A stretch of 64,000 bases of DNA. Origin: Nostoc sp. NMS7 (GTDB lineage: Bacteria > Cyanobacteriota > Cyanobacteriia > Cyanobacteriales > Nostocaceae). The notes beneath the pieces were generated by a model that was not told the origin of the DNA, searched no databases, and saw only the letters and a program-made list of their open reading frames with translations. Made by a program: the position numbers and the translations under genes. Shown one piece after another: positions 197-32,355 of this stretch (its first letter is position 1; the number at the start of each line of letters is the position of its first letter). The stretch lies in assembly GCF_017115085.1 (NCBI RefSeq), contig NZ_JABXKJ010000148.1, forward strand, positions 1-64,000, in the 5' to 3' direction.

Positions 197-240
197 GCCC
201 ACCCCACAAGATTGAATAATTTATTTCTTGGAAATCCCTT
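197..240. repeat. truncated copy of a GTGGGGTGGGC interspersed element
   Basis: GCCCACCCCAC at 197-207 is followed by an A/T-rich tail with TAATTTATTT and AAATCCCTT. The same arm plus tail recurs at 15230-15395, 51778-51867 and, more diverged, 63867-63960. Only the right half is present here. Confidence 0.6.
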
Positions 241-293
241 AGTCTGGATTTAATGGTGTGTTTGGCATCAGACTATGGTTAAAAATTAATAAC

Positions 294-1211
294 ATGGACT
301 TGCCAATTATTTACCACCCAGATTACGTTGCTCCATTACCTGATGGACATCGCTTCCCAATGTCTAAGTTCCGACAACTCTATGAATTGCTGTTAGCTGA
401 CGGCGTGGCGCAAACAGAACAATTTCACATTCCCGAACGTCCCCCACGAGAATTGATAGAGTTAGTCCACACTCCAAGCTATGTTCAAGCTTACTGTCAG
501 GGAACCCTAGACGCCAAAGCACAGCGTCGCATTGGTTTGCCTTGGAGTCCAGCATTAGCGAATCGTACCTGTGTAGCGGTAGGTGGTACGATACTCACTG
601 CTAAAATGGCATTAAGTCAGGGTTTAGCTTGTAATACTGCTGGTGGCACTCATCATGCCTTTCCCAGTTATGGATCTGGTTTTTGTATTTTCAACGATTT
701 AGCGATCGCCTGTCGCGTTTTACAAAAACTCGGACTTGTGCAAAAAATCTTGATTGTAGATTTGGATGTCCATCAAGGAGACGGCACCGCTTTTATCTTC
801 CAAGACGACGAGAGTGTTTTTACTTTCTCCATGCACTGCGAAGTCAATTTCCCTGGTACTAAACAAAACAGCGATTTGGATGTTCCTTTGCCAGTGGGAA
901 TGGAAGATAACGCCTATTTACAAACTTTAGCGAATTACTTAGCAGATTTATTGTCTAAAGTCAAGCCGGATTTAGTATTTTATGATGCAGGTGTTGATCC
1001 TCATATAGGCGATCGCTTGGGCAAATTAGCCCTTACCGACGCTGGCATTTTTCGCCGAGAAATGCAGGTTTTAAGTACTTGTATGAATAGCGGTTATCCT
1101 GTCGCTTGCGTCATTGGCGGCGGTTATGCTGATGATATGAAATCTTTAGTTTGGCGGCATTCCTTGCTGCATCGCGCCGCCAGTGAAGTTTACCAGCAGT
1201 ACAAACTATAG
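294..1211 (+). CDS. histone deacetylase family (HDAC/AcuC-like) hydrolase
   Basis: The 305-residue protein has the arginase/deacetylase-fold hallmarks. These are a tandem-His motif GGTHHAF near residue 120, the metal motif DLDVHQGDGTA near residue 160 (Asp and His zinc ligands), the second ligand region FYDAGVDPHIGD near residue 228, and the glycine-rich GGGYAD near the C-terminus. Family members remove acetyl groups from lysines or small amines in the cytoplasm; the substrate cannot be read from sequence. A GTG at 258 would add 12 residues, but family members usually begin close to the MDLPIIYHP segment, so I chose ATG 294. It stands alone, with the helicase gene 260 bp downstream on the same strand. 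Confidence 0.88.
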   Translation: MDLPIIYHPDYVAPLPDGHRFPMSKFRQLYELLLADGVAQTEQFHIPERPPRELIELVHTPSYVQAYCQGTLDAKAQRRIGLPWSPALANRTCVAVGGTILTAKMALSQGLACNTAGGTHHAFPSYGSGFCIFNDLAIACRVLQKLGLVQKILIVDLDVHQGDGTAFIFQDDESVFTFSMHCEVNFPGTKQNSDLDVPLPVGMEDNAYLQTLANYLADLLSKVKPDLVFYDAGVDPHIGDRLGKLALTDAGIFRREMQVLSTCMNSGYPVACVIGGGYADDMKSLVWRHSLLHRAASEVYQQYKL

Positions 1212-1471: not shown

Positions 1472-4400
1472 ATGAACAAAGTCAAACTCAGAATCTACGA
1501 ACTAGCAAAAGAATTGAATTTGGATAGCAAGAAGCTATTAGTAATTTGCGAAAAGCTCAAAATTGCAGTCAAAAGCCATAACAGCACCATCTCAGAATCC
1601 GAGGCAGAAAGCATTCGTGTAGCGGCAAATAAACTAACAGCAAAATCCTCAAAAATTAAAATAAACTCTGAAGATTGGGGCTATATATTTATAGCTTCAG
1701 CAATTGATAGTTTTATCCGCCATCTGGAAGGTGAAACTGCCCTGAAATCATATCCCGAATTTAGAGAGCGGCGCGATCGCGCCAATGAGTTAATGTATGA
1801 ATGTGTTGGTAAAAAGCCTTCTCTATTTTATGTGCGTCGCAAAGGTGCAGGGAAAGAGTCAAGAGAAGAAATTTGGGATTTGACAATCGCAACAGACAGC
1901 GATGATTTTCAATTACCCGCAAGACTTGAGAAGCTCAGAAAAACATTAGGATTTAGAGCGGCTGTACAAAAAGATGGACGTGGCGGCTTAAAAATACTAT
2001 CGGCTCAGTTGTTACAACCCTCACGGGGATACGCTGATAGTTATGCTGTGCCTTGTCGCTTACGTTTGCTATCAAATCATCAGCATCATCTTCACATTCC
2101 GCCGGCGACATTGAAACGCATCGCTGCCGCGCCAGTTTGTGGCGATCATGTGCCTACAGAAGATCAGCTTAAAGCTTGGAAAGCGTTTTTGCAAATTGAG
2201 GAAAAAATTGCTAAAGCGCGTCAATTTTGTGTGCGTTATCTAAGTCATAACTATAACTTTAAAAGGCGAATCAGTTTTGAAATTGATGTAACTTCAGCCA
2301 CACTTGACGGCTTTTATCAAAATTCCCTCGATGTGGACAATTTCTGGGAACGAGCAAGACGGGCAAAAAACGAAGATTTGAAACTTTTTGAAACTGCTCC
2401 CATCGGAAAAAATTGGATTAATGGCCGCCAACTAGGGACTGTTGAAGAAGTTGATACCAACCGTTGTATTATTAGTCTCAGGCTAGAACGCGATTTAGCT
2501 GAACACATGGCAGCAGAACGTTATCAATTACCAGCTACCGGATTTTTATGTTTTGAGGCAGTTGGTGATATTCAGCAGATTCAACGTAAGAAAAAAGCTT
2601 TAGATGATTTGAATAACGGTTATACCCAGAATCCCTACTTGGGCAACTTTTTATTTGATGCTTCTCAGGCTAGACAAATCAAAACAACTATCGAACTTCA
2701 ACCACAAGATTTGTTGTTATCTTCTGCTAATCCTGGCCAGAAAGCAGCAGTAGAAAAGGTACTTGCCGCTAAGGATCTTGTTCTCATCCAAGGGCCACCG
2801 GGTACTGGTAAAACTACCGTAATTGCCGAGATTTGCTATCAAATTGCGCTTCGCGGTGGACGCACTTTAATTGCTTCTCAAGCAAATTTAGCAGTAGATA
2901 ATGCCCTGAGTCGATTAGTTCATAACCCAGTGATTCGGGCTGTACGCAAGGGGAGAGCCGAAAAAGTTGGGGAAGAAGGACAGCCATTTTTAGAAGATCA
3001 AGTGATTGGCAGATGGCTAGAAAATACAGCGAATGACTGCGAAAACAATCTGACTCAACGGCTCAAAAATATCGAAATTTTCAGTCAATTACTGGCATCA
3101 TCGCCAAGATTCACAGCCTACTTACAAGCCGAGGAAGAATTTAATCAGCAACAAAATAAATTCCATAAAAATAAGTTCAAAATAGAAGTAAACTTTAAAA
3201 ATCAAGAAACCTTTTACAACGAAACTGTAGACAAACAAAATCAGGTTGAATCACTAATTGTAGGTTTAGAAAACATTCTAAATACTGCACCAAATGTCAA
3301 CTGGCAATCTCCAGAAGTTACAGATTTTTTACCGCTTCTTAAGCCCTATACAGAAGGCAACACTTTAGTAGAAGAATTTTTAGCAAGTGTTCGTAAAGCC
3401 ATCAAATATACTGAAGAACTTGGCTTGGTGCTACCGACGGTTGGTGCTTTTGGTTTAGCGGTTTGGTTACGTGAAATAGCAACAGAAATTTCTGAATTTA
3501 AAACTGCTTTTACTCATGCTCAAGATGCAAGTGAAGCCATATCAGAAGTTGCAGCGCAGGTACAGGTTGTTAAACAGAATTTCGCCTCGTTAAATCAGCT
3601 ACAACCAGATTATCAGCAATATCTTACCAAGCTGCAAAATATTCAGCAAACAATCCAGATTTGGCAAAACCGTAAACGAGAAATTGATTATATTATCTCA
3701 GCAGTTAAAGAATGGAAGTCTACAGCATTTTCACATCTGTATCAAACCTTGAAAGATTGTCATCAATCAGGTTTACCACTAACAGAAAATTTAGCAGACT
3801 TACCACTAGGTTTGTTGATGTTTGCAAATACATTAAAATTACCAATAGTACCAAAAAATTATAATATTAACCTACTAGACTGGGAGCTATTGGCAAAAGC
3901 GATCGCTTATGAAATAGATGGAGGTTTTACTGATAGGCGGGGTAAACAGCATAATTTTAGCTATTTTTTACAACAAAATTTTAGTCAGATTCCAATGGTG
4001 CTATCAAAGAGCGATCGCACCCAATGGCATGAAACTTATCAACAGTTTAACAATTATCAACTACTTACCACAAAACAGCGAAAATTACTAGTTGAGAATA
4101 CCCAGGTTTTTTTAATTAGAATGCAAAAAACCTATGGTGGATCATGGGAATGGAATAACATTGATTCTACTCTCACCCAGCTTACACAAGAATTGCTCGA
4201 TACTATCCTTATAAATGCGCGTCAATGCGTTTTAAAAGTAAAAACGGAAACTGAACAACAGCTTCAGCATCTACAACGACAATTAAATGAACTTCAGAAA
4301 AATGAAATCAGCCAGCAGGAAATATCAATTACTCAAGCTGAGGTAGAAAAAGCGCAACAGGATGCTAATTTGCAACTTCGACAAGTTATTAATATCTTGC

Positions 4401-5947
4401 AAGAACTGAATCAAAAAAATATCCCTGCTCAATTACGTATTCTAGTTGAAAAATATCTCACAACACAATCAAATATTTGGGAGCAACCCCAAGAATTCTC
4501 AAAGCAAGTGCATTCTTGGGGAAATTGCATCAGTCAACTTGAAACCTTAATTTCATCATTAGAACCTTTTGCTGTATTGGAGATGATTAGAAATTCTCTA
4601 AATGAGCATTTATCAAAACTAAAAGAAGAAACTGAAATTTCCCTAGAACAGCTTCATAAATTACAAGTTAGTCTAGGTGAAATACAAAATAAATCACAAC
4701 CACAACCCTCAGAAAACTTAATAGAAGAAAGAAACTGGTGGTTGACAGAATGGCAAGGAATACCGGATAAATTTAAACCAGAAAATTCTGCTAGTGAGTT
4801 GTTTAATATAGAGTTATTACGCAGCATTAATATGAAGTTTGAATCTTGGCAACAGGAACTTCAAAAAGAAGAAAATTATCTTAACAAATATCAGATTTTT
4901 GTACAAGATTGGATCGGAAAATTAAGAAATCCAACTGAAGGCGACCGCGACGATTTAAGGCGTATATATTTAGACAATGCCAACGTTGTCGGTATTACCT
5001 GTGTTCAAGCTGCAAATAGAGGTTTTTCGGAAGAATTCAAATCCTTTGATGTCGTCATCATTGATGAAGTTAGTAAATGTACTCCACCAGAGTTACTGAT
5101 TCCAGCCTTAAAAGGTAAAAAATTAGTCATGGTAGGTGATCATCGACAATTACCACCCATGCTTGATACTAGCACTTTAGAAGAAGTTGCTCAAACAATT
5201 GGTAATACACGAGAAGAACTACAATTTTTAGAAGAATCACTCTTCAAAAGTCAGTTTGAATCTGCTGATGAAAGCATCAAACAAATGCTAACTACACAAT
5301 ATCGAATGCACCCATTTATTATGGGAGCAATCAATCAATTTTATGACGGTAAACTAGAATCTGGTATTTTGGAGCCGGATACAAAACGCGCACATCATTT
5401 AGCAGGCGAAATCATCCAAGAATCTCAACATCTTATCTGGGTAAAAACGCCTATCGAAAATCAATTTTTAGAGCAACGAAATGGAACTTCTTACTTTAAT
5501 ACTCAAGAAATTGATGCGATTGAATGTCTGTGTCAGCAGTTCGAGAATATTTGGGCTTCTAAAGTTGCTAATGGTGAACCAAAAAAAGAAATTGCCGTAA
5601 TTACATTTTATGGCGCTCAATTAAGAAAAATTGATGAACGTCTGCAATCTGAACTCTTTCCTTCACTAGAAATTCGTACTGGTACGGTAGACAGATTTCA
5701 AGGTATGGAAAGACCTATTGTAATTGTTAGCATGGTTCGTAATAATAGTAAAGGAGATGTGGGATTTGCCAAGAAGCCAGAACGGGTAAATGTTGCATTT
5801 TCTCGCGCTCAAGAACTGCTGATAATTGTAGGTTGTCATAATTTATTTACCCATCAATCAGGTAAAGTCGGAAGTATGTATTCCGAAGTTTCAAATATTG
5901 TAAGTCTTCATGGAGGTTTCGTTGATGTTTTTCGCCTCTTCAGCTAA
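1472..5947 (+). CDS. IF2_N-domain UPF1-like superfamily 1 helicase, intact copy
   Basis: A 1491-residue NTPase. Residues 3-55 ([17 protein letters not shown], then [14 protein letters not shown]) match the N-terminal domain of bacterial IF-2. SF1 motifs follow: Walker [10 protein letters not shown] near 441, motif II IIDEVSK near 1198, motif [11 protein letters not shown] near 1222, QYRMHP near 1276, [11 protein letters not shown] near 1404 and NVAFSRAQE near 1440. These are typical of UPF1/COG1112 helicases acting on RNA or DNA. About 750 residues of mostly helical, Gln/Glu-rich sequence separate motifs I and II. Residues about 60-235 are missing from the second copy. The nuclease partner expected downstream has been replaced by a hydrolase gene whose start overlaps this one. 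Helicase identity is certain; a role in phage defence is inferred from family and neighbours. Confidence 0.9.
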
Positions 5948-6563
5948 ACCTATCGATGACGAGTGTACTTCATTAAGTCAACGTAAAGGGATTTTGTTAG
6001 CGGTAGATTTACAAAATGGCTTTTTGATCACACCTGAATGTGAAGCGGTTGTGCCAAAGGTAGTTAATAATGCTAGTAAGTTTCATCAGGTTTGGGCAAC
6101 TCGCTTTTTTAACCGGAATCCTAACTTTTCACATCAACTCAACTGGAATGATATGGTTTTTGGACAGGAAACAGAGCTTTCTAAAACCTTAATTCCGCTT
6201 GTCAGTAAAACGTTTGATAAGCCTTCATATTCTCCAATTTCACCTAGCTTGCTCCATATATCCCGCTTTCTTTTTTCTCATGCTCATGCTCCTAGTTCTT
6301 TTGTGATGTCATCTGCCCTGCTCCAAGCACTGCAAAATAATGCTATTACTACAGTCGCAGTGTGTGGAGTTGATACATAAGCTTGTGTGATGGCTACATC
6401 TTTAGGACTCTTTGATGCTGGATTTCAGACGTTCGTAGTATCAGATGGCTGTGCTTCTAGTGGTGGGCAAGAATATCATGAAGCGGCGATTAAGATATTG
6501 AAACGCAATATTGGACAGAAATATGTGATTTCTTTTAGCGAATTACCTGCAATGTTGTCTTAG
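5925..6563 (+). pseudogene. isochorismatase-like cysteine hydrolase, broken by an in-frame TAA
   Basis: The frame encodes a cysteine hydrolase: LLAVDLQNGFL (catalytic Asp) near residue 29, a conserved Lys in the FDKPSYS segment, and ACVMATSLGLFDAGF (catalytic Cys) after the break. Codon 152 is TAA at 6378-6380, inside the normally continuous GVDT-x-ACV motif. Translation would stop just before the catalytic Cys, although the frame stays open to 6563. The first 12 codons ([12 protein letters not shown]) are not from this family; they copy the start of the HKD nuclease at 11962. The ATG overlaps the helicase end and sits behind GGAGG, so the hydrolase has captured the nuclease's translation start. 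Inactivation is the simplest reading. Confidence 0.8.
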
Positions 6564-6570
6564 TGTATAA

Positions 6571-6655
6571 GAGAGTGTTTGAAAAGTTATGAGCGGTAAA
6601 AATTTATGCTAAACGCTTCACCATGATGCAAATCATAGCAAGATAGATACTCGAA
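6571..6655 (-). pseudogene. C-terminal relic of an IS5-like transposase with its terminus
   Basis: Reading the minus strand from 6651, the frame gives SIYLAMICIMVKRLA and a stop at 6604. This resembles the last residues of IS5-family transposases. The following GAGAGTGTTTGAAAAG at 6571-6586 looks like an IS end. No other part of the element is seen. It lies between the broken hydrolase and the Uma2 gene, a place where rearrangement is independently evident. Confidence 0.4.
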
Positions 6656-6819
6656 TTATTTGAAAAGTGGTTTTGTTGTTAATGAAAGGCTTAGGTGAGA
6701 AACAGCAAATATAAAAAGGTGAGAAAAAATAATTTTTAAGCTCCTAGAAAGAAGTTACAATTAACAAACTGCCCTCCAAAACTGATTATTTCTCATTTAG
6801 AAACAGACTGGAGACTTTT

Positions 6820-7416
6820 ATGACCCCAGCAGCGATCGCTACACCCACAAAAGAATCACCCCTTTTGTTTGAAGGACTGACTTGGAGAGAATTCAAAGCA
6901 GTTGAGCAGTTATTAGACCGTCCAGGATATCGGCTGTCTTTCCTGGATGGTGTTTTGGAGATCCGAAGAATGCCTGGAGAACCCCACGAAACTGTTAAGA
7001 AGAGAATTGCCGCATTGTTAGAACTTTACCTACTCATGGCAGGGTTTGACTTTACTCCAACTGGATCAATGACCTTAGAAAATGAATCGGGTGCTGTCAA
7101 GCGAGAGGCGGATGAATCTTATAAACTTGCCCCTGGTAGAGTGCGTCCCGATTTGGCGGTAGAGGTGGTGTTTACCAGTGGCGGTATCAACAAACTAGAG
7201 GCATACAAGCGGCTGTTGATTCCAGAAGTTTGGTTCTGGGAAGATGGAGTGTTAGAAGTTTATCACCTACGGAAAGAAGGCAACGCACTTCACTATGAAA
7301 GGGTTTCTAGTAGTGAGGAGGTTAAAGGTATCGATCTGGATTTGTTGTTACGCTGCATTAATATGGTGAATCATGTTGATGCCATCAAGACTTTTCAGCA
7401 GGCGCTTCAAAAATAG
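6820..7416 (+). CDS. Uma2 family (DUF820) PD-(D/E)XK endonuclease
   Basis: The 198-residue protein shows the layout of the Uma2 family, abundant in cyanobacteria. An N-terminal helix-rich start is followed by FLDGVLEIRRMPGEPHE near residue 45 (conserved Glu/His), RPDLAVEVVFTSGG near residue 108 (catalytic Asp and Glu) and EVWFWEDGVLEVY near residue 137. The fold is a restriction-endonuclease-like nuclease; cellular roles are poorly known. The reading frame is full length. It sits between two fragments of the nuclease-gene start (5925-5960 and 7423-7497), so it may have arrived as cargo of the rearrangement that destroyed that gene. Confidence 0.85.
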   Translation: MTPAAIATPTKESPLLFEGLTWREFKAVEQLLDRPGYRLSFLDGVLEIRRMPGEPHETVKKRIAALLELYLLMAGFDFTPTGSMTLENESGAVKREADESYKLAPGRVRPDLAVEVVFTSGGINKLEAYKRLLIPEVWFWEDGVLEVYHLRKEGNALHYERVSSSEEVKGIDLDLLLRCINMVNHVDAIKTFQQALQK

Positions 7417-7422
7417 CTGGCG

Positions 7423-7497
7423 ATTTCTGCTAAACCTATTAATAATAATCTCAAGAATTTGGTATATAAAATTGAGGCAATATACTGGACAAATTAA
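7423..7497 (+). pseudogene. relic of the 5' end of a second HKD-nuclease gene
   Basis: Seven bases after the Uma2 stop the sequence can be read ISAKPINNNLKNLVYKIEA, then TAA at 7495. The intact nuclease gene at 11962 begins [20 protein letters not shown]. The match covers about 20 codons and has no start codon. It marks where the first module's nuclease gene once stood, or a third copy of its start. Confidence 0.65.
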
Positions 7498-7613
7498 CCA
7501 TCACCAAAGCTGACATTTTTCGTCGTAAATTTCTGTTTTGAGTGACTGTGTAGTATTGACAATACAGACTAGATAGTAATTTTATTTGATTTGTGAAAAT
7601 TGAAAAGCTTAGA

Positions 7614-7648
7614 TTCCCGATTTCTTAGAGAAGTCGGGAATTTTATTC
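7614..7648 (+). terminator. interspersed hairpin with T-rich tail
   Basis: TTCCCGATTTCTT at 7614-7626 pairs with AAGTCGGGAA at 7631-7640, then TTTTATTCTT. Near-identical hairpins occur at 33381-33413 and 39107-39145, each after a gene, so this is a dispersed hairpin family that can work as an intrinsic terminator. Confidence 0.55.
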
Positions 7649-7763
7649 TTGGTGGGTAATACTACCTAAAATAGGCAAAGCAGCAGAAATTTAAGATGTT
7701 GTTCCTTGCCAGCATTTGGGAATACTAGACTTGGAAACCTTTGTTAGTAAAGGCAAGCTGTGG

Positions 7764-10700
7764 ATGAACAACGCCCAACTCAGAATCTATGAGCTATCAA
7801 AAGAATTCAATTTGGAGAACAAAGAGTTACTAGCAATTTGCGACCAACTCAACATCGTAGTCAGAAGCCATAGCAGCAGGATTTCCGAATCTGAGGCAGA
7901 ACAAATCCGTTTGGCTGCTGAAAAACTTGCATCTAAAAAGGGGACACCGAAAAATGAATTAGGTATAACCAGTCATCAACCAAAGTCACCAGAGATTATC
8001 TCTCAAAATCGACTTGCTCCACTTCTCAGACAACAAATTTTGGAAATTCCTAAACCCATAATCTTTAGAAATCGTCTCTCTAACATACGAATTTGGGAAG
8101 TATTTTTACAGATTGAGGAAAAAATCGCTAAAGCACGCCAATTTTGTGTGCCTTTTTTCACCCACAATGGCTTCGGAAGACGGATCACTTTTGAGATTGA
8201 CGTAACCTCAGCTACTCTTGAGGGTTCTGATGAAAATTCCTTAACTGTGGAAAACTTCTGGGAACGGGTAAAACTAGCAAAAAGTGAAGAGATTAAGCTG
8301 TCCGAGACTACTCGCACAAGAGAAAACTGGCATAGCAGCCGCAATAAATTGGGAACTATTGAAAAAGTTGTCCCAAACAGTTGTACCATACGCGTGACGC
8401 TAAAAGACGATTTAGCTGACGATATGGCAGCAGGGCGTTATCAGCTACCAGCTACCGGATTTTTGTTTTTCGAGGCAGTTGGTGACATCCAACAGATTAA
8501 ACGCAAAAAAGAAGCCTTGGCACAATTAAAGCAGGGACGCACCCAAAATCCTTATTTGGGAAACTTCTTATTCGACGCTTCCCAAGCAAGACCTATCCAA
8601 AAAACTGTTGAATTGCGACCAGAGGATTTGTTGTTATCCTCAGCTAATCCTAGTCAGAAAGCAGCAGTAGAAATGGTGCTTGCAGCTGAGGATTTAGTTC
8701 TCATTTAAGGTCCGCCAGGTACTGGTAAAACTACCGTAATTGCCGAGATTTGCTATCAAGTTGCTATTCGAGGTGGACGCACTCTAATTACTTCTCAAGC
8801 CAATTTAGCAGTAGATAATGTCCTGAGTCGATTAGTTCATAACCCTGTAATTCGGGCTGTGCGAAAGGGAAACGCCGAAAGAGTTGGGGAACAAGGACAG
8901 CCATTTCTAGAAGATCGAGTGATTGGCACATGGTTAGAAAATACTGCTACTGACTGCGAAACAAATCTTGCCCAACGCCTCGATAATGTAAGAGATTTAC
9001 AGCAATTGTTAGCAGCATCAGAACGATTCACAACATACTTGAAAGTAGAAGAGGCATTTAAGGGAGAGCAGAATCTATTACAGACACGCAAAGCAAATTT
9101 AGAGTCAGCTTGTACGACCAAAAAAAATGAATACAATCAAGCTGCATCTCAACTGAGCGAGGTCGAATCTGTGAAAACGGCTTTGGAGGATTTGCTGAAT
9201 CAAGCACCTTCAATAGATTGGCAAGATCCAGCACTTCTTAATTTGTGGGCGGGTCTGAACAAATACACATCTACAGACGCTTCATTCCGAAACTTTGCTG
9301 CAAATCTTCGATTAGCAATTGATTTGGCTTCTGAACTTGGTATCGTTCGCCCAAATCACGGCTTATTTGGTTTAGCTGGTTGGTTGCAAAACACTGTAGC
9401 TTCTTGGATTACTGAAGTTCGCACAGCATTAGCCTACGCCAGTGATACAGCTATGGCAATGACCGAAGCGGAGTTAACTGCACAAACTTACACACAAAAT
9501 TCAGAATTTCTTGCTCGCCGAAAGTCAAATCACCAACAATTGCTTGCGAACCAGCAAAGTTTACAGCAAAGAATTAGGGATCTACATAACCGTGAATCTG
9601 AGGTCAGTTTAGCAATAAGTGACCTTGATATATGGCTATCTACAGCTAATTTAAATATCGTCAATGTATTGAAACAGTGCTTACAAAATCGTCAAGACTT
9701 TACAGTTGACTTAATCTCACTACCTTCGGCATTACAAAGCATGACGATGGAAGCTCAATATCTACCCTGGCAACAAAGTCTTGATCAGTGTAGGGTAAAA
9801 GTTAATCAGTTAATTCAGAAATACCATCAAAGGGATAGGGTATCCAGTCAGGTTAGTGAGATAAAAGATTTACTCGTGCGGGGGCGAAATATACTAGGTC
9901 ATCGCTCAATCAATGAAGCTGCTATTTCTCAGGTGAGCGTTAGTAAAGCGCTAGACCCTGTGGAATCCCTCATAAAGCTAAAGCAACTAGCACAACATAG
10001 CATTGATGACATTGAGAAACCACTAGGGGTCTGGGGTCGGATTATTGAATGGATGCTTGCGGTTGCTGTCAAGCATAAAAGTTTGGATTCCATAGCTCAA
10101 AAGTTACGTCCATATAGCCGCCGTTATAGTGCCGCGGTAACTCTTGAGGCTATTAGGAGACAAGCCCAGATTATATGTCAAACAGTGCAACCTGTTGAGA
10201 GTAAATCGGCTATCTCACAGATTACAGTGGAGGTGGCCAACGGCATGGTTACAAGTGCGCGTACATGGCTAAAGCAACTACAGACTGAAACAGAAAAGGA
10301 GCAAAAGCAGCTTCAGCAACAATTAAATGAACAGATGAGGTTGGCGGTTAATGAGCAACAAAAAATATCTGCTAATCAAGAGCAGCTAGAAACTTCTTGT
10401 AGTGAGGCTGACTTAAAATTAAAAAGAGCGATCGCACTCTTAAAAGAACTTTTTCCCTTCCCATACTTACCCGGTGAATTAAGACTTTTAGTGCAAGAAT
10501 ACCTCGATAATCCTTCAAATATTCTGACTGAGACACCACGATTTACAGCAAAAATACGCCACTGGGGAAATTGTACAAAACAACTTGATACTTTGATTCG
10601 CTTAATCGATCCTTTTGCTACACTTTCGACTAGCAAAGACTTGCTGATAGTTCGTATTACTAGCTTGCAGAAAACAACTGAAACTTACAAAAACCAATTT

Positions 10701-11984
10701 ATAGAAACTCAAAGCCAAACACAGCAAATTGTTGATAATTTACGGCAGCAATTAGAATATATATCAACTGAGCGAACTTGGTAGCAGTCAGTTTGGAAAG
10801 CCATTCCTAGTAAATTCAAGCCTAAACTTGATTCTACAGACTTGTTTAATCTGGACTTTTTACACACTATCAATACTCAGTTTAAATCTTGGCAACAGCA
10901 ACTCCAAAAAGATGAAATTTATCTCAATCGATATCAGCACTTTGTTCAAGATTGGATTGGAAAATTAAGAAAGCCAACTGAAGGCGATCGCACTGATTTA
11001 ACGCGACTAAATAATGCCAACGTCATTGGTATTACTTGCGTTCAAGCTGCAAATTACAATTTTTCACAAGAATTCAGATACTTTGATGTTGTCATTATTG
11101 ATGAAGTTAGTAAATGTACTCCTCCAGAGTTATTAATCCCAGCTTTGAAAGCCAAAAAGTTGGTTATGGTTGGCGACCATCGACAATTACCACCCATGCT
11201 TGACATGAAGACTTTAGAGGAAGTTTCTCAAGAGATTGGCAGCACAAATCCAGAACTACAATTATTGCAAGACTCACTGTTTAAAATTCACTTTGAAACT
11301 GCTAATGATAGTATCAAACAAATGTTAAATATTCAATATCGAATGCACCCCATAATTATGGGCGCAATCAATCAGTTTTATGATGGTAAACTAGAATGTG
11401 GTATTTTAGAGCCGGATACAAAACGCGCACATAATTTAGCAGGCGAAATCATCGAAGAATCTAAGCATCTTATCTGGGTAAAAACGCCTGGAAGTAATCA
11501 ATTTCAAGAGAAACTTACAGGAACTTCATTCTATAATATTCCAGAAATTAATGCCATTGAAATTTTGTGTAAGCAATTTGAGACTACTTGGGCTTCTAGA
11601 GTTGCTAATGGTGAACCAAAAAAAGAAATCGCCGTGATTACTTTTTTTGGTGATCAACTCAGAAAAATTGATGAGCGCCTGCAATCTAAACTTTTCCCAT
11701 CGCTGCAAATCACTACTGGTACAGTAGATCAATTTCAAGGTATGGAACGACCTGTTGTAATTGTGAGTATGGTTCGTAATAATAGTAGAGGAGATGTGGG
11801 ATTTGCCAAAAAGCCAGAACGAGTTAACGTTGCTTTTTCCCGCGCTCAAGAACTACTAGTAATTGTGGGTTGTCATTCGCTATTCACCCAGCAGGGTAGA
11901 GAAGTCGGGAGTATGTACTCCAATGTTTCAAACATCGTGCGTCTACATGGAGGTTTCATTAATGTTTCTCGCCTCTTCAGCTAA
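7764..11984 (+). pseudogene. second IF2_N UPF1-like helicase, interrupted by two in-frame stops
   Basis: A paralogue of the gene at 1472, with one frame kept over 1406 codons except for TAA at 8706-8708 (codon 315) and TAG at 10782-10784 (codon 1007). The first replaces the CAA (Gln) immediately before Walker A GPPGTGKT; the second replaces a TGG (Trp) kept in the intact copy. Both fit C-to-T or G-to-A transitions. All other parts remain: IF-2-like N-terminus ([17 protein letters not shown]), Walker [31 protein letters not shown] and NVAFSRAQE. The region matching residues 60-235 of copy 1 is nearly absent. ATG 7764 aligns with the copy-1 start. Recent inactivation is likeliest; recoding cannot be excluded. 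Confidence 0.85.
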
Positions 11985-13770
11985 ACCAATTGATGACAAT
12001 CTTAAGAAGTTGGTAGAGGAAATAGAAGCGCAAAGCCTTAGTTTATCAGTTTTAGCCGCGCGTCAATTCCGTTATAGTTTGCATCAAACTTCGGTAGAAG
12101 TAAATATCAAAGAACCCCGTCAGTTTAACGTACTCGAAGAATTTATTATTCGTGCTGCTATTGAATTTCAACCTCCGCCAACAGAGGATGAATTAGCCTC
12201 TGTACTTGGTCTTGATTCTATATTTATCCAAACTACTACTGCAACTCTTCGGACATTACAAACTCTATCAGCAACATCGCCACTAACAGTCACTCCTGAA
12301 GGTCGTTCATTCTATGAAAAAGGGTCTGTACCACAGCCCCCATATCCTGTACAGCTTAATGCTATTACAGACCCTTTAAGCGACAAAATCACCTTTCAAT
12401 CTGAATCCTTAAATGAGACAGTGATAAATTTGCCTGATTTGGCAGACTTTATAACTATTGATCATACAATTGCTGATATTGCTTCGTTACCGCTTGAGGA
12501 AATACAAAAAAGTATTCAGGTTTCAGCTTTAGCACTTCATGTCCCAGAAGAGGGAAAAATTGTTACTTCCTATAAAGTATTAGCTTCGACTCAAAAAATT
12601 GGGAGAAAGATATCGCTTTTCGTTATCTTCGATGCCCTTGAAGATAAATTGAGTATTCAAATCAGAAATGGAAAGCAAATTTTAGAGTCAGCATCCAACT
12701 GGTTAGAACTGCTACATACTGAAGGGAAAATATCTTTGCAAGCATTATGTAAATTGTCAACTGAAACCATCAATTTTGAACGTGAAGCTATTCTCAAGCA
12801 AAAAAACACTGAAATAGAAGCTAGACTCGAAAATATTCGCCAAAAAGTGCTAGAAACTCCCACAAAAGCTGCTGGAAAAGTAGTAGGTGAGGCTATACAG
12901 TTACGCGATAGACAAATTAGCCAAGCTTTTTCAGAAGTTTTAAATTCAGCTAAAAATCAGCTTCTAATTTATTCTCCTTGGGTTAATCAGGCAGTTGTCA
13001 ATGAAACATTTCTAGCTCTGTTACAGAAATTAGCTAATCGCGGAGTTTGGATTTTGATTGGACATGGAATTGCGCGGCGAGAAGAAGATGAAGATAAACC
13101 AATTCCACCAGAACTAGAGAAAAAACTTCGAGCGATAAAAACCCCTGATGGTTTACCATGTGTACAGGTTCTTTGGTTGGGTGATTCCCATGTCAAAGAA
13201 GTAATAGTTGATCAGCAAATCCATCTTTGTGGATCTCATAACTGGTTATCCTATCGCGGCGACTACCTACCACGAGGCGAGTCAGTTTATAAAGTTACAA
13301 TTCCCCATCAAGTTCAGGAAGCTTATGAATTTCTCGCTAATCGCTTCCAAAATCATGCTCAAAAATTATGGGAAAATGCTCTCGAAAACCGCGATTATAA
13401 ACTGGCTGTAGAGTGTTTATGTATGTGGGGTGCGCTAGGTATGGAAGATATTGCACTCCAAAAAATACAGCAAAATAACTGGCTGGAACTTTTGCCTGTG
13501 TGGTTGAATGTAGCACTTCAGGGGTTAAAGTCCAAGAATATACAAGCTGATTCAGCAAGTTTTAAAACGGCACTTTTGTTACTGAGTCAAGTTTCTATTG
13601 AAGAGGCTTTTATTGAGTCATTACAGCAGGGATGGCGGAAAGTTATCCGCGCGATCGCTACTAATAATCCTCAAACGGCTTTAAACTTACTGAGTGATGA
13701 TGTATGGGCGCAGTTTCTACGTCTCAATATTGCCCAAAAGAGTGATTCACCTGCTGATTTTATTCTGTAG
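11962..13770 (+). CDS. HKD (phospholipase-D-like) nuclease, partner of the IF2_N helicase
   Basis: A 602-residue protein. The C-terminal half carries one PLD motif: HVKEVIVD near residue 410 (HxK plus Asp), followed by CGSHNWLS. LLIYSPWV and GVWILIGHG precede it as in this fold. PLD nucleases normally dimerise to form one active site. The N-terminal 250 residues are unassigned; residues about 280-300 look coiled. ATG 11962 lies 8 nt after GGAGG and overlaps the helicase end by 23 bp, implying coupled translation. An upstream in-frame start at 11863 is not supported. No signal peptide or membrane segment is seen. The helicase-plus-PLD pairing suggests nucleic-acid defence; that role is inference. 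Confidence 0.82.
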   Translation: MFLASSAKPIDDNLKKLVEEIEAQSLSLSVLAARQFRYSLHQTSVEVNIKEPRQFNVLEEFIIRAAIEFQPPPTEDELASVLGLDSIFIQTTTATLRTLQTLSATSPLTVTPEGRSFYEKGSVPQPPYPVQLNAITDPLSDKITFQSESLNETVINLPDLADFITIDHTIADIASLPLEEIQKSIQVSALALHVPEEGKIVTSYKVLASTQKIGRKISLFVIFDALEDKLSIQIRNGKQILESASNWLELLHTEGKISLQALCKLSTETINFEREAILKQKNTEIEARLENIRQKVLETPTKAAGKVVGEAIQLRDRQISQAFSEVLNSAKNQLLIYSPWVNQAVVNETFLALLQKLANRGVWILIGHGIARREEDEDKPIPPELEKKLRAIKTPDGLPCVQVLWLGDSHVKEVIVDQQIHLCGSHNWLSYRGDYLPRGESVYKVTIPHQVQEAYEFLANRFQNHAQKLWENALENRDYKLAVECLCMWGALGMEDIALQKIQQNNWLELLPVWLNVALQGLKSKNIQADSASFKTALLLLSQVSIEEAFIESLQQGWRKVIRAIATNNPQTALNLLSDDVWAQFLRLNIAQKSDSPADFIL

Positions 13771-13968: not shown

Positions 13969-15108
13969 GTGGTTTTATTAAAAGGCTTTGAAATAGAGAT
14001 ATACACTGGCACGCCTCAAGGTGAAATCGTCGGCCTCTCCGACAAGATTGTTGCAGATTTGGATGGATTTATGCGGGAGCCAGATAGCCGCAATGTCGAA
14101 TACATAACCGAACCATCCCCTAATTACGATAATTTATTGTGTGCTTTGCTGCGTCCCCGGCGAGAGTTGCGAAACTACCTCGATCGCTTGGGCAATTACA
14201 CTTTGATCCCAGGAAGTACTCTATCTTTGGGTGGGAGCGATCGCTTTCTGCGTTCCGATCCAGCAAACCCTTATCATGACTACATTGAGAACACCTACGG
14301 AACAAAAGTAGTCACCGCTAGCGTACATATTAATGTCGGCATCAGCGACCCAGAAGTATTAATGCGAGCGTGTCGGGTGATCCGTATGGAAGCACCTCTA
14401 TTTCTCGCCCTCAGCGCCTCATCTCCCTTCCTGGATGGGAAAACTACTGGCTATCACTCCACCCGTTGGGGACTCTTTCCGCAAACGCCTAGCCATGTGC
14501 CGTTATTTGCCAGCCACGCCGATCATATTCAATGGGTGGAAGATCAACTCGCTGCTGGAACAATGCAAAATATACGGCATTTGTGGGCATCAGTGCGCCC
14601 AAATGGCGATCGCCGTCCCTATGACTTGAATCGCCTAGAATTGCGAATTTGTGATTTAGTCACAGATCCCATTGCCTTGCTAGCGATTAGTGCCTTATTA
14701 GAAGCGCGTTTATTGCAAATAATCGAAAATCCCAGCATCGATCCGTTAACTCAAAGTACTTTCTCTGCTGAAGAACTCGTCACCCTGACTGCTGAGAATG
14801 AAGCTGCTGCTGCTGTTGGTAGTCTTGATGCTCATTTGAGGCATTGGCAAGATGGCAGAAGCATCTTAGCCAGAGATTGGATTTCTCAAATGTACCAAGA
14901 TGTTTGGGCGATCGCTAAACAACAAGGCTTTAGCTGTTTCCTTTCCCCTTTGCACAAAATCCTCCGCGAAGGCAATGAAGCTCAACAGTGGTTACAATTA
15001 CACGCAGTCGGTTTTGACAGCCAACGCGTCATCACTCAGGCGATTGTTGCCACCCAAGAACACGAAATCGAACTCGAAGACAAATTGTGTTCCTCTCTGC
15101 TGGCTTAG
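13969..15108 (+). CDS. gshA: glutamate--cysteine ligase, cyanobacterial type
   Basis: The 379-residue product matches the cyanobacterial glutamate-cysteine ligase family (GCS2-like), which joins L-Glu and L-Cys with ATP in the first step of glutathione synthesis. Recognisable segments are LLKGFEIEIYTGTPQGEIVG at the start, the EPSPNYD region near residue 48, a long central part with SASSPFLDGKTTGYHSTR near residue 150, and LNRLELRICD near residue 224. The start is GTG 13969, behind GAGGAGAA at 13957-13964. It stands alone, with 198 bp of A/T-rich spacer upstream. gshB is not in the window. Confidence 0.85.
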   Translation: MVLLKGFEIEIYTGTPQGEIVGLSDKIVADLDGFMREPDSRNVEYITEPSPNYDNLLCALLRPRRELRNYLDRLGNYTLIPGSTLSLGGSDRFLRSDPANPYHDYIENTYGTKVVTASVHINVGISDPEVLMRACRVIRMEAPLFLALSASSPFLDGKTTGYHSTRWGLFPQTPSHVPLFASHADHIQWVEDQLAAGTMQNIRHLWASVRPNGDRRPYDLNRLELRICDLVTDPIALLAISALLEARLLQIIENPSIDPLTQSTFSAEELVTLTAENEAAAAVGSLDAHLRHWQDGRSILARDWISQMYQDVWAIAKQQGFSCFLSPLHKILREGNEAQQWLQLHAVGFDSQRVITQAIVATQEHEIELEDKLCSSLLA

Positions 15109-15229
15109 AAGTTCTGCGTTAGCGTTGGCGTAGCCTCTCGTAGAGAAGCTCACCGTTGGCGTTCGCGTTAGCGTCTCTGAAAGAGAAGCCTCTCGTAGAG
15201 AAGGTATCGCTAAACTAGGGATTTCCCAC
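15109..15229. repeat. clustered GTAGCCTCTCGTAGAGAAG-type repeats
   Basis: Several overlapping copies of the words GCGTTAGCGTTGGCG, CCTCTCGTAGAGAAG and GCGTCTCTGAAAGAGAAG follow the gshA stop. Similar words occur at 41955-41975 (GTCTCGTAGAGAAGG). This is a palindromic interspersed repeat typical of Nostoc-group genomes, with no coding content. Confidence 0.55.
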
Positions 15230-15395
15230 AAATAAATTACTACTACTTGTGGGGTGGGCAGCGTTCGATGGTTCCTGAGCTTTGTCGAAGGACTGAGCGC
15301 TCACGCCGAAGTCTTGCCCGCCTTTGGTTGCTGGGCGGGCGAGACGCCCACCCCACAATAAATAATTGGATATTTTTTTATTTGTCAGTCCCTTA
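15230..15395. repeat. GTGGGGTGGGC inverted-repeat element
   Basis: The arms TTGTGGGGTGGGC at 15248-15260 and GCCCACCCCACAA at 15345-15357 face each other. Short flanks AAATAAATT and AATAAATAATT and the tail GTCCCTTA follow the pattern of the other family members. It fills the convergent gap between gshA and the dehydrogenase gene. No ORF is inside. Confidence 0.6.
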
Positions 15396-28070: not shown

Positions 28071-29816
28071 ATGCTACAAGGATGGATTCAAATTGCATTA
28101 ACGCTACTAATTATAGTAGTGATAACTCCATTTTTTGGGAAATACATGGCTCGTGTATTCCTAGAACAAAGTACTTTTCTCGACGTGATTTTGAATCCGC
28201 TTGAACGAGTGCTTTATTCTTTGGTTGGCGTTCAAACCCAAGAAAATATGACGGGTTGGCAGTATGCGCGATCAATACTGTACAGCAATGTAGTCATGGC
28301 GTTGCTGATTTTCTTCGTGATCGCAAATCAGGGATGGCTACCCCTTAACCCAACCAAGATAGGCGCCCCAACCTGGGACACCATAGTACACACTACAATT
28401 TCCTTTATTACCAATACCAACCAGCAGCACTATTCTGGTGAAACTTACTTGAGCTACGGTAGTCAAATGTTGGGGCTGGGCTACCACATGTTCACCTCGG
28501 CTGCAACGGGCATAGCAGTTGCGATCGCCTTTATTCGAGGCTTGACGGGTAGACCTTTGGGCAACTTCTATGTAGACCTAATTCGCTCGATAACCCGAAT
28601 TTTGCTGCCGATTAGTATTGTCGGCGGGATCGTTTTCATGGCCCTTGGTGTGCCAGAAACCTTGGCAGGACCTGCGGTGTTTCCGACTTTAGAAGACCCT
28701 AATATTAGTCAGGCGATCGCTCTTGGCCCAGTTGCCCACTTTGAAATTATCAAACAGCTAGGCGAGAATGGCGGCGGCTTTTTTGCGATCAACTCCGCAC
28801 ACCCCTTTGAAAATCCCAACGCATTTTCTAACTTAATTCAGATCGTGGCAATGCTTTCGATTCCCACGTCCCTGATCTTTACCTATGGCTTGTTTGCAAA
28901 TAACACCAAACAAGCCTGGCTACTCTACGGCATGGTCGGTGTAATTTTTGTCGGATTTTTGATTGTCACCGCCATTGGGGAATATAACGGCAATCCGGCT
29001 GTAAATGCGCTTTTGGGCAGTCAGCAAGTGAACCTAGAGGGTAAAGAAGTCCGCTTTGGTTGGGCACAATCTGTACTGTTTGCCGTAAGTACAACTGGTA
29101 CTATGTGCGGCGCTGTCAACAGTTTCCACGACTCCTTCATGCCCGCCGGCGGTTTTATTTTTCTCTCTAATATGTTCCTGCAAATCATGTGGGGCGGACA
29201 GGGTACAGGAACAGCTTACTTGTTTGCCTATAGCATCCTGGCGGTATTCGTCACTGGTTTGATGGTGGGACGCACGCCAGAATTTCTGGGACGCAAGATT
29301 GAAAAGCGTGAGGTTGTGCTTGCAAGCTTCCTGATTTTGCTGGTTCACCCCATCGCCATTTTGATTCCAGGGGCGATCGCCTTAGCTTTTCCTGACCAAC
29401 TGGCAGGGATTAGCAATCCTGGGTTTCACGGCTTTTCTCAAGTAATTTACGAATATGCCTCAGCTGCTGCCAACAACGGTTCTGGCTTTGAAGGTTTAGG
29501 CGATTCACAACCTTCTCCGTTAGCGATCGCTACGGGGACAAAAACTACTGCAACCGCCCTCTGGTGGAATCTAAGTACCTGCTTCAGTTTACTAGCCGGA
29601 CGCTATATTCCGATCATTGGTTTGTTGTTGTTAGCAGATAGTATGTCTCGCAAACAAGCTGTTCCCTACACGACTGGTACATTGCGAACTGATACCGGAT
29701 TATTTACAGGTGTCACCGCAGGCGTGATTTTAATTCTAGGCGCACTTACATTTTTCCCAGTATTAGCATTGGGTCCCATCGGTGAAGCCTTTTTTATCGC
29801 CAAAGGTATTGGGTAG
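28071..29816 (+). CDS. kdpA: potassium-transporting ATPase subunit A
   Basis: A 581-residue inner-membrane subunit that forms the potassium-selective pore of the KdpFABC pump. The four pore-loop filters are normal: [11 protein letters not shown] near residue 119, [19 protein letters not shown] near residue 238, [16 protein letters not shown] near residue 346 and [13 protein letters not shown] near residue 466. About ten membrane helices are seen. It is first in the operon kdpA-kdpB-kdpF-kdpC, with a 397-bp repeat-filled gap before kdpB. Kdp operons are usually induced by potassium shortage through KdpDE; no kdpD or kdpE lies here. Confidence 0.96.
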
Positions 29817-29928
29817 GGAGTGGGCTTGCCGTGAGCGTAGCCGAATGGGAATGGGCTTGCCGTGAGCGTAGCCGAATGGGAGTGGGGGGATGAGGGGGAC
29901 AAGGAAAATTAGAGGCTGATTCATCTAT
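29817..29928. repeat. 31-bp direct duplication after kdpA
   Basis: The unit TGGGCTTGCCGTGAGCGTAG (first 20 bases) followed by CCGAATGGGA occurs twice in tandem at 29821-29881, directly after the kdpA stop. Confidence 0.7.
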
Positions 29929-30189
29929 CCACCTCGGAACTCCGTTCATCCACCTCGGAACTCCGTTCATCCACCTCGGAACTGGATTCATCCACCTCGG
30001 AACTGGATTCATCCACCTCGGAACTGGATTCATCCACCTCGGAACTGGATTCATCCACCTCGGAACTGGATTCATCCACCTCGGAACTGGATTCATCCAC
30101 CTCGGAACTCCGTTCATCAACTTTGGAACTGGATTCATCCACTTCGGAACTGGATTCATCCACCTCGGAACTCCGTTCATCCACCTCAA
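29929..30189. repeat. 21-bp minisatellite, about 12.5 copies, between kdpA and kdpB
   Basis: The unit is TTCATCCACCTCGGAACT plus either GGA or CCG. Twelve units contain GGAAC; the last is cut short at CACCTC. Units 10 and 11 carry point changes (CAACTTT, CACTTC), the rest are nearly identical. Because 21 is a multiple of three, open frames of 7-residue repeats appear on the minus strand, which I take as by-products. The array ends 24 bp before the kdpB start. Confidence 0.92.
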
Positions 30190-30213
30190 AGACTCATGCC
30201 CAAAATTTAATAT

Positions 30214-32355
30214 ATGCCAACTACTACTGATTCTCCTTCAGCCCGGACTGCATCTGGAACTCGTGATTCGCGCAGGCACACGCCCAAAGCGGATTTGCGG
30301 GGACTTTATCAGAGAGCAATTCGGGAGTCATTTATCAAGCTCGATCCTCGAATTACCGTCAGAAACCCAGTTATGTTTGTTGTTTGGGTGGGGACGATTG
30401 TCACCTTTCTAGTCACCCTTAACCCAAATCTGTTTGGTACAATCCAGGCAGATATGAACCAACAACGCGTCTTAAACGGGTTGATTACCTTTATTCTGTT
30501 TTTCACACTCCTTTTTGCCAACTTTGCCGAAGCCGTAGCTGAAGGACGCGGTAAAGCCCAGGCTGATTCACTAAGAACGACGCGATCGGATACGATCGCT
30601 AACAAAATCCTCCCTGATGGTTCGATAGTAAAAGTCAGTTCTACGGAACTGCGGCGGGGGGATTTGGTGCAAGTGGTTGCAAATAATATGATTCCCGCCG
30701 ATGGGGATGTAATTAAAGGTATCGGCTCAGTGGATGAGTCTGCAATTACCGGGGAATCTGCTCCTGTATTGAAGCAACCGGGTACAGATATTGCCAGTTC
30801 GGTGACAGGCGGTACACGCCTACTCTCTGACGAGTTGACAATTCGCATTAGTGCTGATCCTGGTCAAGGCTTTATTGATCGGATGATTGCCTTGGTAGAA
30901 GGGGCACAACGCACCAAGACTCCCAACGAAATTGCCTTGACAGTATTGCTAGCAGTACTAACACAGGTGTTCTTGATTGTGGTGTCAACAATACCTCCCT
31001 TTGTGGGCTATATTGCCAGCTTTATCAGCACAGCCTTTGGGGTTGAGGCGGGAAACAGTTTGCGTGCAGGTGCTAGCGTTGCCATCCTGATTTCGCTACT
31101 CGTAGCTTTGATTCCCACAACTATTGGTGGTTTGCTCAGTGCGATCGGCATCGCAGGTATGGACAGGGTTGCCCAGTTTAATGTCATCGCTACCTCTGGT
31201 CGAGCAGTAGAAGCTTGTGGTGACATCAATACGCTGGTGCTAGATAAGACAGGCACGATCACCTTGGGGAACCGCATGGCTGATGAGTTTATTCCCCTGA
31301 ATAATCACTCACTAAAAGACGTGGCGCAAGTCTCCCTAGCTGCTAGCTTGTTTGACGAGACCCCAGAAGGCAAATCAATTGTAGTTTTAGCAGAAAAGTG
31401 CCAGGCTGCGGTAGACTTTAACAGTGACAAAGCCGAAGGTGTGGAGTTTTCGGCAAAAACCCGCATGAGTGGCACAAATCTACCCGATGGCAAACAAATT
31501 CGTAAAGGAGCAGTGGATGCCATTAAAGGGTTTGTCCGTTCCCGTGGCGGAGAAGTTCCTGATGATACAGACGCAGCTTATGAGCGCGTTTCCCGATTAG
31601 GAGGTACGCCCTTAGCTGTCTGCCAAGATGCCGAGATTTATGGTGTCATCTACCTCAAAGATATTGTCAAACCTGGTCTGCGGGAACGATTTGACCAACT
31701 CCGCCGCATGGGTGTTCGCACTGTTATGCTCACAGGTGACAACCGAATTACCGCTTCGGTAATTGCCGAAGAAGCTGGGGTTGATGATTTCATTGCCGAA
31801 GCGACTCCAGAAGACAAAATTGAAGTGATTCGCTCCGAACAATCTCAGGGTAAACTGGTGGCAATGACCGGAGATGGTACTAACGATGCCCCTGCCCTAG
31901 CTCAAGCAAACGTGGGTGTGGCAATGAACTCTGGGACACAAGCTGCTAAAGAAGCCGCTAACATGGTGGATTTAGACTCTGACCCCACGAAGCTAATTGA
32001 CCTAGTAACCATCGGAAAACAGTTGTTGATTACTCGTGGAGCATTGACAACATTCTCGATCGCTAACGATATTGCTAAATATTTTGCGATCATTCCCACG
32101 ATCTTTGCAGCTGCTGGAATCGGCGCACTGAATATTATGGCATTAAAGAGTGCCCAATCTGCGATCGTCTCGGCGCTGATTTACAATGCCTTGATTATTC
32201 CGGCATTAATTCCGCTAGCACTCAAAGGGGTAAAGTTCTTGCCTTTAACAGCAGATCAACTCCTACGTCGCAACATCTTGATCTATGGCCTTGGTGGAAT
32301 CGTTGCTCCCTTCATTGCCATCAAACTGATAGATATTATCTTACCTTTGTCTTAA
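30214..32355 (+). CDS. kdpB: potassium-transporting ATPase subunit B (P-type ATPase)
   Basis: The 713-residue catalytic subunit of Kdp. It has the actuator motif TGESAPVLK near residue 183, the phosphorylated Asp in [11 protein letters not shown] near residue 344, a nucleotide-binding domain, and the hinge motif [20 protein letters not shown] near residue 552. A basic cytoplasmic N-terminus (about 45 residues) precedes helix 1, longer than in many bacteria. The start follows the minisatellite directly; no strong ribosome site is apparent before ATG 30214. Partner genes kdpF and kdpC follow within a few bases. Confidence 0.97.

What the first reader, a model, noticed from the sequence alone, without database searches (positions are those of the whole stretch)
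1472..13770. Candidate defence module: IF2_N-UPF1-like helicase plus overlapping HKD nuclease, tandemly copied
Seen: two very large SF1 helicases with the same unusual architecture, the second directly overlapped by a PLD-motif protein gene with its own GGAGG. Known: COG1112-type helicases together with PLD nucleases make up Mokosh phage-defence systems. Inferred: this is a related but distinct type, because it carries an IF-2-like N-domain, has a roughly 750-residue helical insert between motifs I and II, and shows no kinase. Tandem duplication, decay of one copy and swapped partner genes fit a defence locus under turnover.
Basis: partly seen in the sequence, partly recalled or inferred. Interest (0 to 1): 0.85.

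Follow-up and report, generated by a model that had tools for sequence, protein, structure and literature searches.

The report
Mokosh-like helicase with swappable effector partner
In filamentous cyanobacteria a very large RNA/DNA helicase is paired with a small adaptor protein whose killing part can be a nuclease, a DNA-modifying toxin or nothing at all, and the helicase often carries a copy of the front end of the cell's own translation factor IF-2; it looks like a kinase-less cousin of the Mokosh anti-phage system, but antiviral activity has not been tested.

Summary
Observation mostly confirmed. HelA (1472-5947, 1491 aa, intact) and HelB (7764-11984, two nonsense stops) are SF1 UPF1-like helicases with IF2_N and a helical insert; HelB overlaps a PLD-family gene (11962-13770). 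PADLOC: HelA = MkoA (6.6e-115), PLD protein = MkoB (3.2e-25). No kinase or NERD found, so Mokosh-like, not Mokosh type I. The pair is real: the same 32 of 292 cyanobacterial genomes, and 57 of 99 Nostocaceae, match both. Corrections: (1) not a recent tandem duplication: cores 79% identical, inserts 29%, and HelB's insert type occurs elsewhere. (2) HelB's first 106 residues match the start of infB, linker included. (3) At the usual site (HDAC-like gene to GCS2) the pair is inherited vertically among housekeeping genes. (4) The true partner swap lies elsewhere: the adaptor half is fused to DarT instead of PLD in five loci, two inside BREX operons; of 84 partner ORFs 34 keep the nuclease motif and 38 lack the nuclease domain. 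Best reading: a helicase-adaptor-effector defence family, possibly domesticated in Nostocaceae. New variant of a known kind; function untested.

The parts
1472..5947 (+). HelA: intact 1491-aa SF1 UPF1-like helicase with IF2_N
   Evidence: w 0.136, 0.166, 0.183 against three same-genus orthologues
1484..1618 (+). IF2_N domain of HelA (residues 5-49)
   Evidence: Pfam PF04760 5.5e-11; 72% identical to the host's own IF-2 over 58 residues (that gene is IF-2 by TIGR00487)
1652..2167 (+). N-terminal alpha/beta domain (residues 61-232), absent from HelB
2792..2815 (+). motif I (GPPGTGKT) of HelA
2957..4927 (+). helical insert of HelA between motifs I and II (alpha type)
   Evidence: model; types
5925..5960 (+). 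remnant of a partner-gene start overlapping the HelA stop
   Evidence: read from the translation; 77% to the intact partner over the first 22 residues of the fragment
5961..6564 (+). isochorismatase-like fragment, stopped at 6378
   Evidence: Pfam PF00857 4.7e-05, under the curated cut-off
6820..7416 (+). Uma2 (DUF820) gene; also matches PADLOC candidate PDC-S17
7417..7479 (+). second 21-residue remnant of a partner-gene N-terminus
   Evidence: tblastn E 0.002
7764..11984 (+). HelB: pseudogene of a beta-type helicase, stops at 8706 and 10782
7764..8081 (+). infB-like 5' end of HelB (106 codons, with infB linker)
   Evidence: nt identity to infB of 20 genomes 73-84% (nt 1-180) and 64-79% (181-318); HelA only 38-48% in the second part
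9186..10812 (+). beta-type insert of HelB (approximate limits)
   Evidence: 29% to HelA, 51% to G019
11949..11953 (+). GGAGG ribosome-binding site of the partner gene
11962..13770 (+). MkoB-like partner: adaptor (residues 1 to ~290), PLD domain, helical C-terminus
   Evidence: PADLOC MkoB 3.2e-25; model pLDDT 85, pTM 0.59
13189..13212 (+). single HKD motif (H409-K411-D416, numbered from 11965)
258..1211 (+). left flank of the conserved site: histone-deacetylase-like gene
   Evidence: 86 of 99 Nostocaceae
13969..15108 (+). right flank of the conserved site: GCS2 glutamate-cysteine ligase family gene
   Evidence: 98 of 99 Nostocaceae

Best explanation
The locus encodes a kinase-less Mokosh-like pair: a UPF1-like SF1 helicase and a partner made of an adaptor half (perhaps winged-helix) plus an exchangeable effector. 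Most likely working (inferred): the helicase is sensor and motor on invader RNA or DNA, its long, type-variable coiled-coil insert contacts target or regulator, and the adaptor docks the effector on the helicase so that engagement releases it. The effector is a PLD nuclease here (cuts nucleic acid) and, in a sister branch, a DarT ADP-ribosyltransferase, with an ADP-ribosylglycohydrolase gene beside it in 3 of 5 loci. The IF2_N tag, shared with host IF-2, probably tethers the complex to initiating ribosomes or serves as bait. In Nostocaceae the pair settled between an HDAC-like gene and GCS2, is inherited vertically there, and the nuclease has come or gone several times while helicase and adaptor stay under purifying selection. 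In Nostoc a second, beta-type helicase (HelB) stands beside HelA and is decaying in many strains. Shown: architecture, relation, pairing, effector exchange, infB-like HelB start, selection. Inferred: defence, docking, tethering.
For: MkoA/MkoB matches. The same 32 of 292 genomes match both; in 99 Nostocaceae 57 match both, 1 the helicase alone, none the partner alone, broken genes included. 62 of 75 helicase ORFs have the partner ORF within 400 nt on the same strand, 56 overlapping by longest ORF. Adaptor-DarT fusions: DarT Pfam 2e-18, 1.2e-17, 6.7e-21 in three loci, 9.2e-16 on plasmid pC052_C and 5.8e-21 beside a helicase fragment in G348; BREX genes on both sides in Nostoc sp. C052 and in Anabaenopsis elenkinii. 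Helicase and PLD partner on two plasmids (Aulosira laxa, conjugative; Cyanobacterium sp. HL-69). infB-like start; an intact HelB with IF2_N in L291. Purifying selection. Helical insert. Partial fold matches to PLD, NucT and TrmB proteins.
Against: The common site is housekeeping, not an island. Only 34 of 84 partner ORFs keep an HKD nuclease, so the nuclease cannot be essential to whatever is conserved. Helicase and partner are lost or broken in some genomes (G068, G302, G339). DarT forms are few, their helicases are long-branched, and the hydrolase gene is adjacent in 3 of 5. The winged-helix call rests on weak, below-cut-off Pfam hits and a poor overall fold match. No activity data; docking, substrate and the role of IF2_N were not tested.
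Confidence: 0.58

Rival explanations
1. Domesticated helper: in Nostocaceae the helicase and adaptor have become a housekeeping RNA-surveillance or translation-coupled helicase (UPF1-like in kind), tied to ribosomes by IF2_N, with the old defence nuclease in the course of loss.
For: Vertical inheritance at one site, helicase dS close to HDAC and GCS2 dS; 38 of 84 partner ORFs without nuclease domain, 6 of them with the C-terminus kept, 8 parsimony changes of nuclease state in the main clade; helicase w 0.09-0.26; nearest solved structures SMUBP-2 and UPF1; IF2_N as in host IF-2.
Against: 27 of 62 linked HDAC-GCS2 sites have no helicase between (hand tally), so it is not essential; intact PLD partners stay under purifying selection; the DarT branch lies in BREX in 2 of 5 loci.
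Confidence: 0.27
2. An ordinary Mokosh system, already covered by existing models and merely divergent.
For: PADLOC MkoA and MkoB models ring.
Against: No kinase, no NERD; the kinase-bearing control covers PDLC03920 from 6 to 1105 and has Pkinase 2.6e-39, while HelA's best stretch covers 721-1082; effector exchange and IF2_N were not seen in the one control.
Confidence: 0.1
3. The window locus is a decaying relic without function: HelB broken, HelA without its own partner.
For: HelB has two stops and HelA only a partner remnant behind it; in G068 the helicase is a fragment and the partner frameshifted; in L258 HelA is a fragment and in L251, L257, L259 and L285 no HelA was seen in the stretch held.
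Against: HelA and the PLD partner stay under purifying selection among same-genus genomes, w 0.14-0.18 and 0.18-0.22, even where they lie 1.3 Mb apart (G125); a whole HelA frame is seen in 14 of 28 Nostoc-type loci, 9 more being cut by the locus edge.
Confidence: 0.05

Closest known systems
Mokosh type I (MkoA/MkoB)
   Same: SF1 helicase plus a PLD protein with a matching N-terminal half; PADLOC models ring for both
   Different: no kinase and no NERD; IF2_N or another N-terminal tag; partner often without nuclease or with DarT; overlapping genes, often at one fixed chromosomal site
Mokosh type II (MkoC)
   Same: helicase and PLD parts both match MkoC
   Different: two genes instead of one fused protein
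DarTG
   Same: DarT domain in the sister branch
   Different: DarT is the C-terminal half of the adaptor protein, tied to a helicase; where a hydrolase gene lies next to it, it is an ADP-ribosylglycohydrolase (PF03747). A DarTG2 embedded in a type I restriction operon is known (PMC12255303, passages seen)
Auxiliary effectors embedded in BREX (survey PMC12839542)
   Same: effector module placed between pglX and pglZ
   Different: the part of its section 35 that I read lists nucleases (HKD-DNase among them); a find in its main text for DarT, ribosyl, ADP-ribos and Mokosh gave 0
UPF1 / SMUBP-2 helicases
   Same: helicase core, E about 1e-35
   Different: about 650-residue helical insert between motifs I and II, and IF2_N

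Membership tests
Mokosh type I | MkoA-type SF1 helicase | tested here: met
   PDLC03920 6.6e-115
Mokosh type I | MkoB partner with PLD nuclease next to the helicase | tested here: met
   PDLC03922 3.2e-25, profile 16-433 of 610; single HKD. In the window the adjacent helicase is the broken HelB; 34 of 84 partner ORFs overall keep HKD
Mokosh type I | protein kinase domain in MkoA (recalled as part of the type; in the control it lies within model PDLC03920) | tested here: not met
   no kinase at E 0.1; positive control L348 shows Pkinase 2.6e-39
Mokosh type I | NERD domain (listed for the type in PMC10952713, passage seen) | tested here: not met
   no NERD at E 0.1; the control L348 showed none at 0.001 either, so this is weak
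Mokosh type I | protects against phage | not testable with these tools
Mokosh type II | helicase and PLD in one polypeptide | tested here: not met
   two genes
DarTG (sister branch only) | DarT domain | tested here: met
   PF14487 in 5 adaptor loci
DarTG (sister branch only) | DarG macrodomain antitoxin (recalled) next to DarT | tested here: not met
   adjacent gene is ADP_ribosyl_GH PF03747 by Pfam in 2 loci and by 86.6% identity in a third; in the other 2 no such gene is adjacent and their neighbours were not scanned for a macrodomain
Defence-island gene | enriched beside defence genes | tested here: inconclusive
   PLD and short forms: no family shown matched more than 4 of 111 flanking ORFs (111 of 142 candidates scanned, 12 loci incl. 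the DarT forms left out beforehand); DarT forms: 2 of 5 loci in BREX; the window's Uma2 gene matches candidate PDC-S17

The most novel reading that the evidence does not exclude
A general helicase-adaptor platform in which one adaptor plugs different effectors (PLD nuclease, DarT, none) onto a UPF1-like helicase, and which uses a captured copy of the host's IF-2 N-terminal domain, taken or renewed at least twice (an older form in HelA, a separate one with infB linker in HelB), to couple the system to translation initiation, as tether or bait. In Nostocaceae it has turned from defence into a translation-linked nucleic-acid surveillance machine.
Probability: 0.25. Interest if true: 0.78.

Novelty: new variant of a known kind. 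Interest (0 to 1): 0.55.

Why it matters
It would show that Mokosh-like systems are modular, with one helicase-adaptor core and exchangeable effectors, and that a defence-type helicase can take up part of a host translation factor. It gives natural nuclease-less, nuclease and DarT versions with which to ask what the helicase alone does.

Tried and rejected
Recent tandem duplication: rejected; in a core-only tree HelB and G019 join with weak support (47), so a mosaic origin of HelB is possible but not shown. Stop-codon recoding in HelB: not pursued, since HelB has only two stops and beta-type frames are open in L283 and L291. Isochorismatase as a new partner: rejected, a broken fragment. Clustering of inserts by single-linkage BLAST lumped 75 of 76 and was replaced by column identity. 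Foldseek with the HelA 1-1199 model gave mostly coiled-coil look-alikes at E<=0.001 (SMC-type, MukB, PrgA), with TM at most 0.11, of no meaning for function. No phage record matched the partner. The plasmid helicase of Aulosira laxa is annotated as IF-2-domain-containing, but Pfam finds no IF2_N in it at 0.001. The genome-contig scan used an HKD-containing pattern, so its HKD share (72 of 78) is biased and was not used as a frequency. One unneeded locus (L087) was fetched.
Full report
What is there. HelA (1472-5947) is an intact 1491-aa SF1 helicase with IF2_N at its start and motifs I and II far apart. A model of residues 1-1199 (mean pLDDT 75, pTM 0.35) makes ~496-1152 almost wholly helical. 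HelB (7764-11984) is the same kind of gene with TAA at 8706 and TAG at 10782 in an otherwise open frame. The partner gene starts at ATG 11962 behind GGAGG and overlaps HelB's stop. PADLOC calls HelA MkoA (6.6e-115) and the partner MkoB (3.2e-25).

The pair. In 292 genomes of the phylum (drawn evenly, own genome included), 32 match the helicase at E<=1e-60 and 32 the partner at E<=1e-15, the same 32. In 99 Nostocaceae 58 match the helicase and 57 the partner; one (G350) has only the helicase at these limits. Broken genes are among the matches (G068, G302, G339). Of 75 helicase ORFs over 1100 aa, 62 have a same-strand partner ORF within 400 nt, 56 of them overlapping by longest ORF. In 78 named loci found through the partner, 40 have the helicase C-terminus within 150 nt; of the other 38, 24 are Nostoc-type loci (one search list) in which HelB is lost, broken or out of the stretch held.

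The site. Tallied by hand, the HDAC-like gene and GCS2 lie within 20 kb on one contig in 62 genomes; 35 have the helicase (in G327 a part of it) between them, 27 do not (7 of these have a helicase elsewhere). Seven of the empty sites were fetched and show no helicase or partner remnant at E 0.01. dS of helicase, partner, GCS2 and HDAC are close in most pairs, for example G000-G167 0.315, 0.321, 0.298, 0.287; exceptions are the G334-G331 partner (0.594) and G292-G314 (helicase 0.825, GCS2 0.617). This speaks for vertical inheritance there. Of 10 proteins in and around the window locus only the Uma2 gene rang in PADLOC at 1e-5 (PDC-S17, 8.7e-74). Of 111 flanking ORFs at other loci no family shown matched more than 4 at 1e-20; those with 3-4 are PD-T4-6, mad6, MkoA and C3a189 models, which a kinase alone also rings (control); mad3 matched 2; 11 of 36 families were not shown.

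HelA and HelB. Their cores are 79% identical, residues 600-1100 29%; HelB and G019 are 75% and 51%. For pairs of 70-80% core identity within one insert type, insert identity averages 52% and is never under 36%. In the whole-helicase tree HelB joins G019 (support 100), in the insert tree too (100), in the core tree weakly (47). Of 28 Nostoc-type loci with 8 kb upstream of the partner, a beta-type HelB frame is open in 2 (L283, L291) and broken in 4 (L245, L251, L258, L286), a C-terminal helicase stub remains in 5 (L244, L252, L257, L274, L289), in L264 HelA itself abuts the partner, and in 16 nothing was seen. HelA is a whole frame in 14, cut by the locus edge in 9, a fragment in 1 (L258) and not seen in 4 (L251, L257, L259, L285). 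The side-by-side arrangement is thus shared by several strains and the two types differ by their inserts.

IF2_N. 22 of 76 helicases carry it (G296 also has it, on a split contig). The host gene used for comparison is IF-2 (TIGR00487, 832 bits). HelB's first 106 codons match infB including the infB linker: 64-79% nt identity at nt 181-318 to infB of 20 genomes against 38-48% for HelA; best G191 (79%) and G019 (77%), the host's own 70%. In a 60-column tree HelB's IF2_N falls among infB, HelA's in its own clade, but few forks are resolved and one origin of all is not ruled out. The same infB-like start is found in L245, L251 and L291, with the following helicase domain kept in L251 and lost in L245 and L291; in L283 the tag is missing. 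Pfam confirms IF2_N in L291 (1.2e-8) and L251 (5.4e-12) and not in L283. Gene conversion from infB is an alternative to a fresh fusion. Other members carry a different ~220-aa N-terminal tag (read from the sequences; no Pfam family over its cut-off in four of them) or none. Two literature searches listed 3 papers and 1 paper, none about an IF2_N helicase by title and abstract start; not opened.

Effector states. Of 84 partner ORFs at 88 loci, 34 keep adaptor plus PLD with HKD, 1 has H-x-R (G326), 6 keep adaptor and C-terminus without the PLD domain, 33 only the adaptor (one of these, G068, is a piece of a frameshifted gene, hence 32), 3 have DarT and 7 are other fragments. On the tree nuclease presence needs 8 changes in the main clade and 9 overall (DarT forms and G350 scored as without); direction was not tested. 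Short partners are under purifying selection (w 0.13-0.31 in 6 pairs), helicases 0.09-0.26, long partners 0.17-0.41.

DarT branch. Adaptor-DarT fusions occur in G229, G353, G365, on Nostoc sp. C052 plasmid pC052_C and, with a helicase fragment, in G348: 5 loci. An ADP-ribosylglycohydrolase gene is adjacent in G229, G353 and C052, not in G365 or G348. In C052 and in G353 (one locus of which equals Anabaenopsis elenkinii CCIBt3563, NZ_CP063311.1, by 180 of 180 exact 50-mers) the module lies between pglX and pglZ of a BREX operon. G157 has DarT plus the hydrolase without helicase or adaptor in the stretch held. Searches for helicase, DarT, BREX and related terms (listings of 3, 4, 0 and 8 of 26) showed no paper describing this by title and abstract start; of these I opened PMC12839542 (outline, finds, first part of section 35) and PMC12255303 (passages). 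The library is open-licence only and the founding Mokosh paper is not held, so its features are recalled. Of PMC11291487 I saw passages, which say that Mokosh degrades viral transcripts.

Reading. The adaptor is the shared element, the C-terminal effector is exchangeable, the helicase is the constant motor. That pattern, the Mokosh relation, the plasmid copies and the BREX placement favour defence in origin. The fixed site, the selection on nuclease-less forms and the IF2_N tag leave open that in Nostocaceae it now serves RNA or translation surveillance. Mechanism beyond anatomy is inference.

Noticed in passing
window 28071-37093: Two kdpA-like genes (28071-29816 and 35378-37093) with kdpB and kdpC-like genes between, named by recall from the translations: an apparent partial duplication of the Kdp potassium pump.
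   Followed up: no
window 43484-47249: ABC exporter that begins like a C39 peptidase, next to an HlyD-like gene: possible peptide (bacteriocin-type) export pair; read from the translations only.
   Followed up: no
window 197-239, 15217-15259, 15346-15378: Copies of a GCCCACCCCACAA-type repeat, one pair inverted (43 nt, 84%), flank the whole HDAC-helicase-partner-GCS2 block.
   Followed up: no
L167 5821-6699, L170 6278-7156: A 292-aa gene, by recall a bile-acid-symporter-like protein, sits between helicase and PLD partner in G356 and G303; a like gene lies near the partner in G278 and G068.
   Followed up: no
L344 9159-11198: DarT fused behind a cold-shock domain, next to the ADP-ribosylglycohydrolase gene, without helicase in the stretch held: another DarT architecture.
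   Followed up: partly
L083, L229, L230: A kinase-like gene (by its sequence) lies on the other strand upstream of the helicase in three related genomes; Mokosh type I has its kinase fused to the helicase.
   Followed up: no
G000:C137:62682-63224: The window's own genome has a DarT domain inside a 1975-aa open frame.
   Followed up: no
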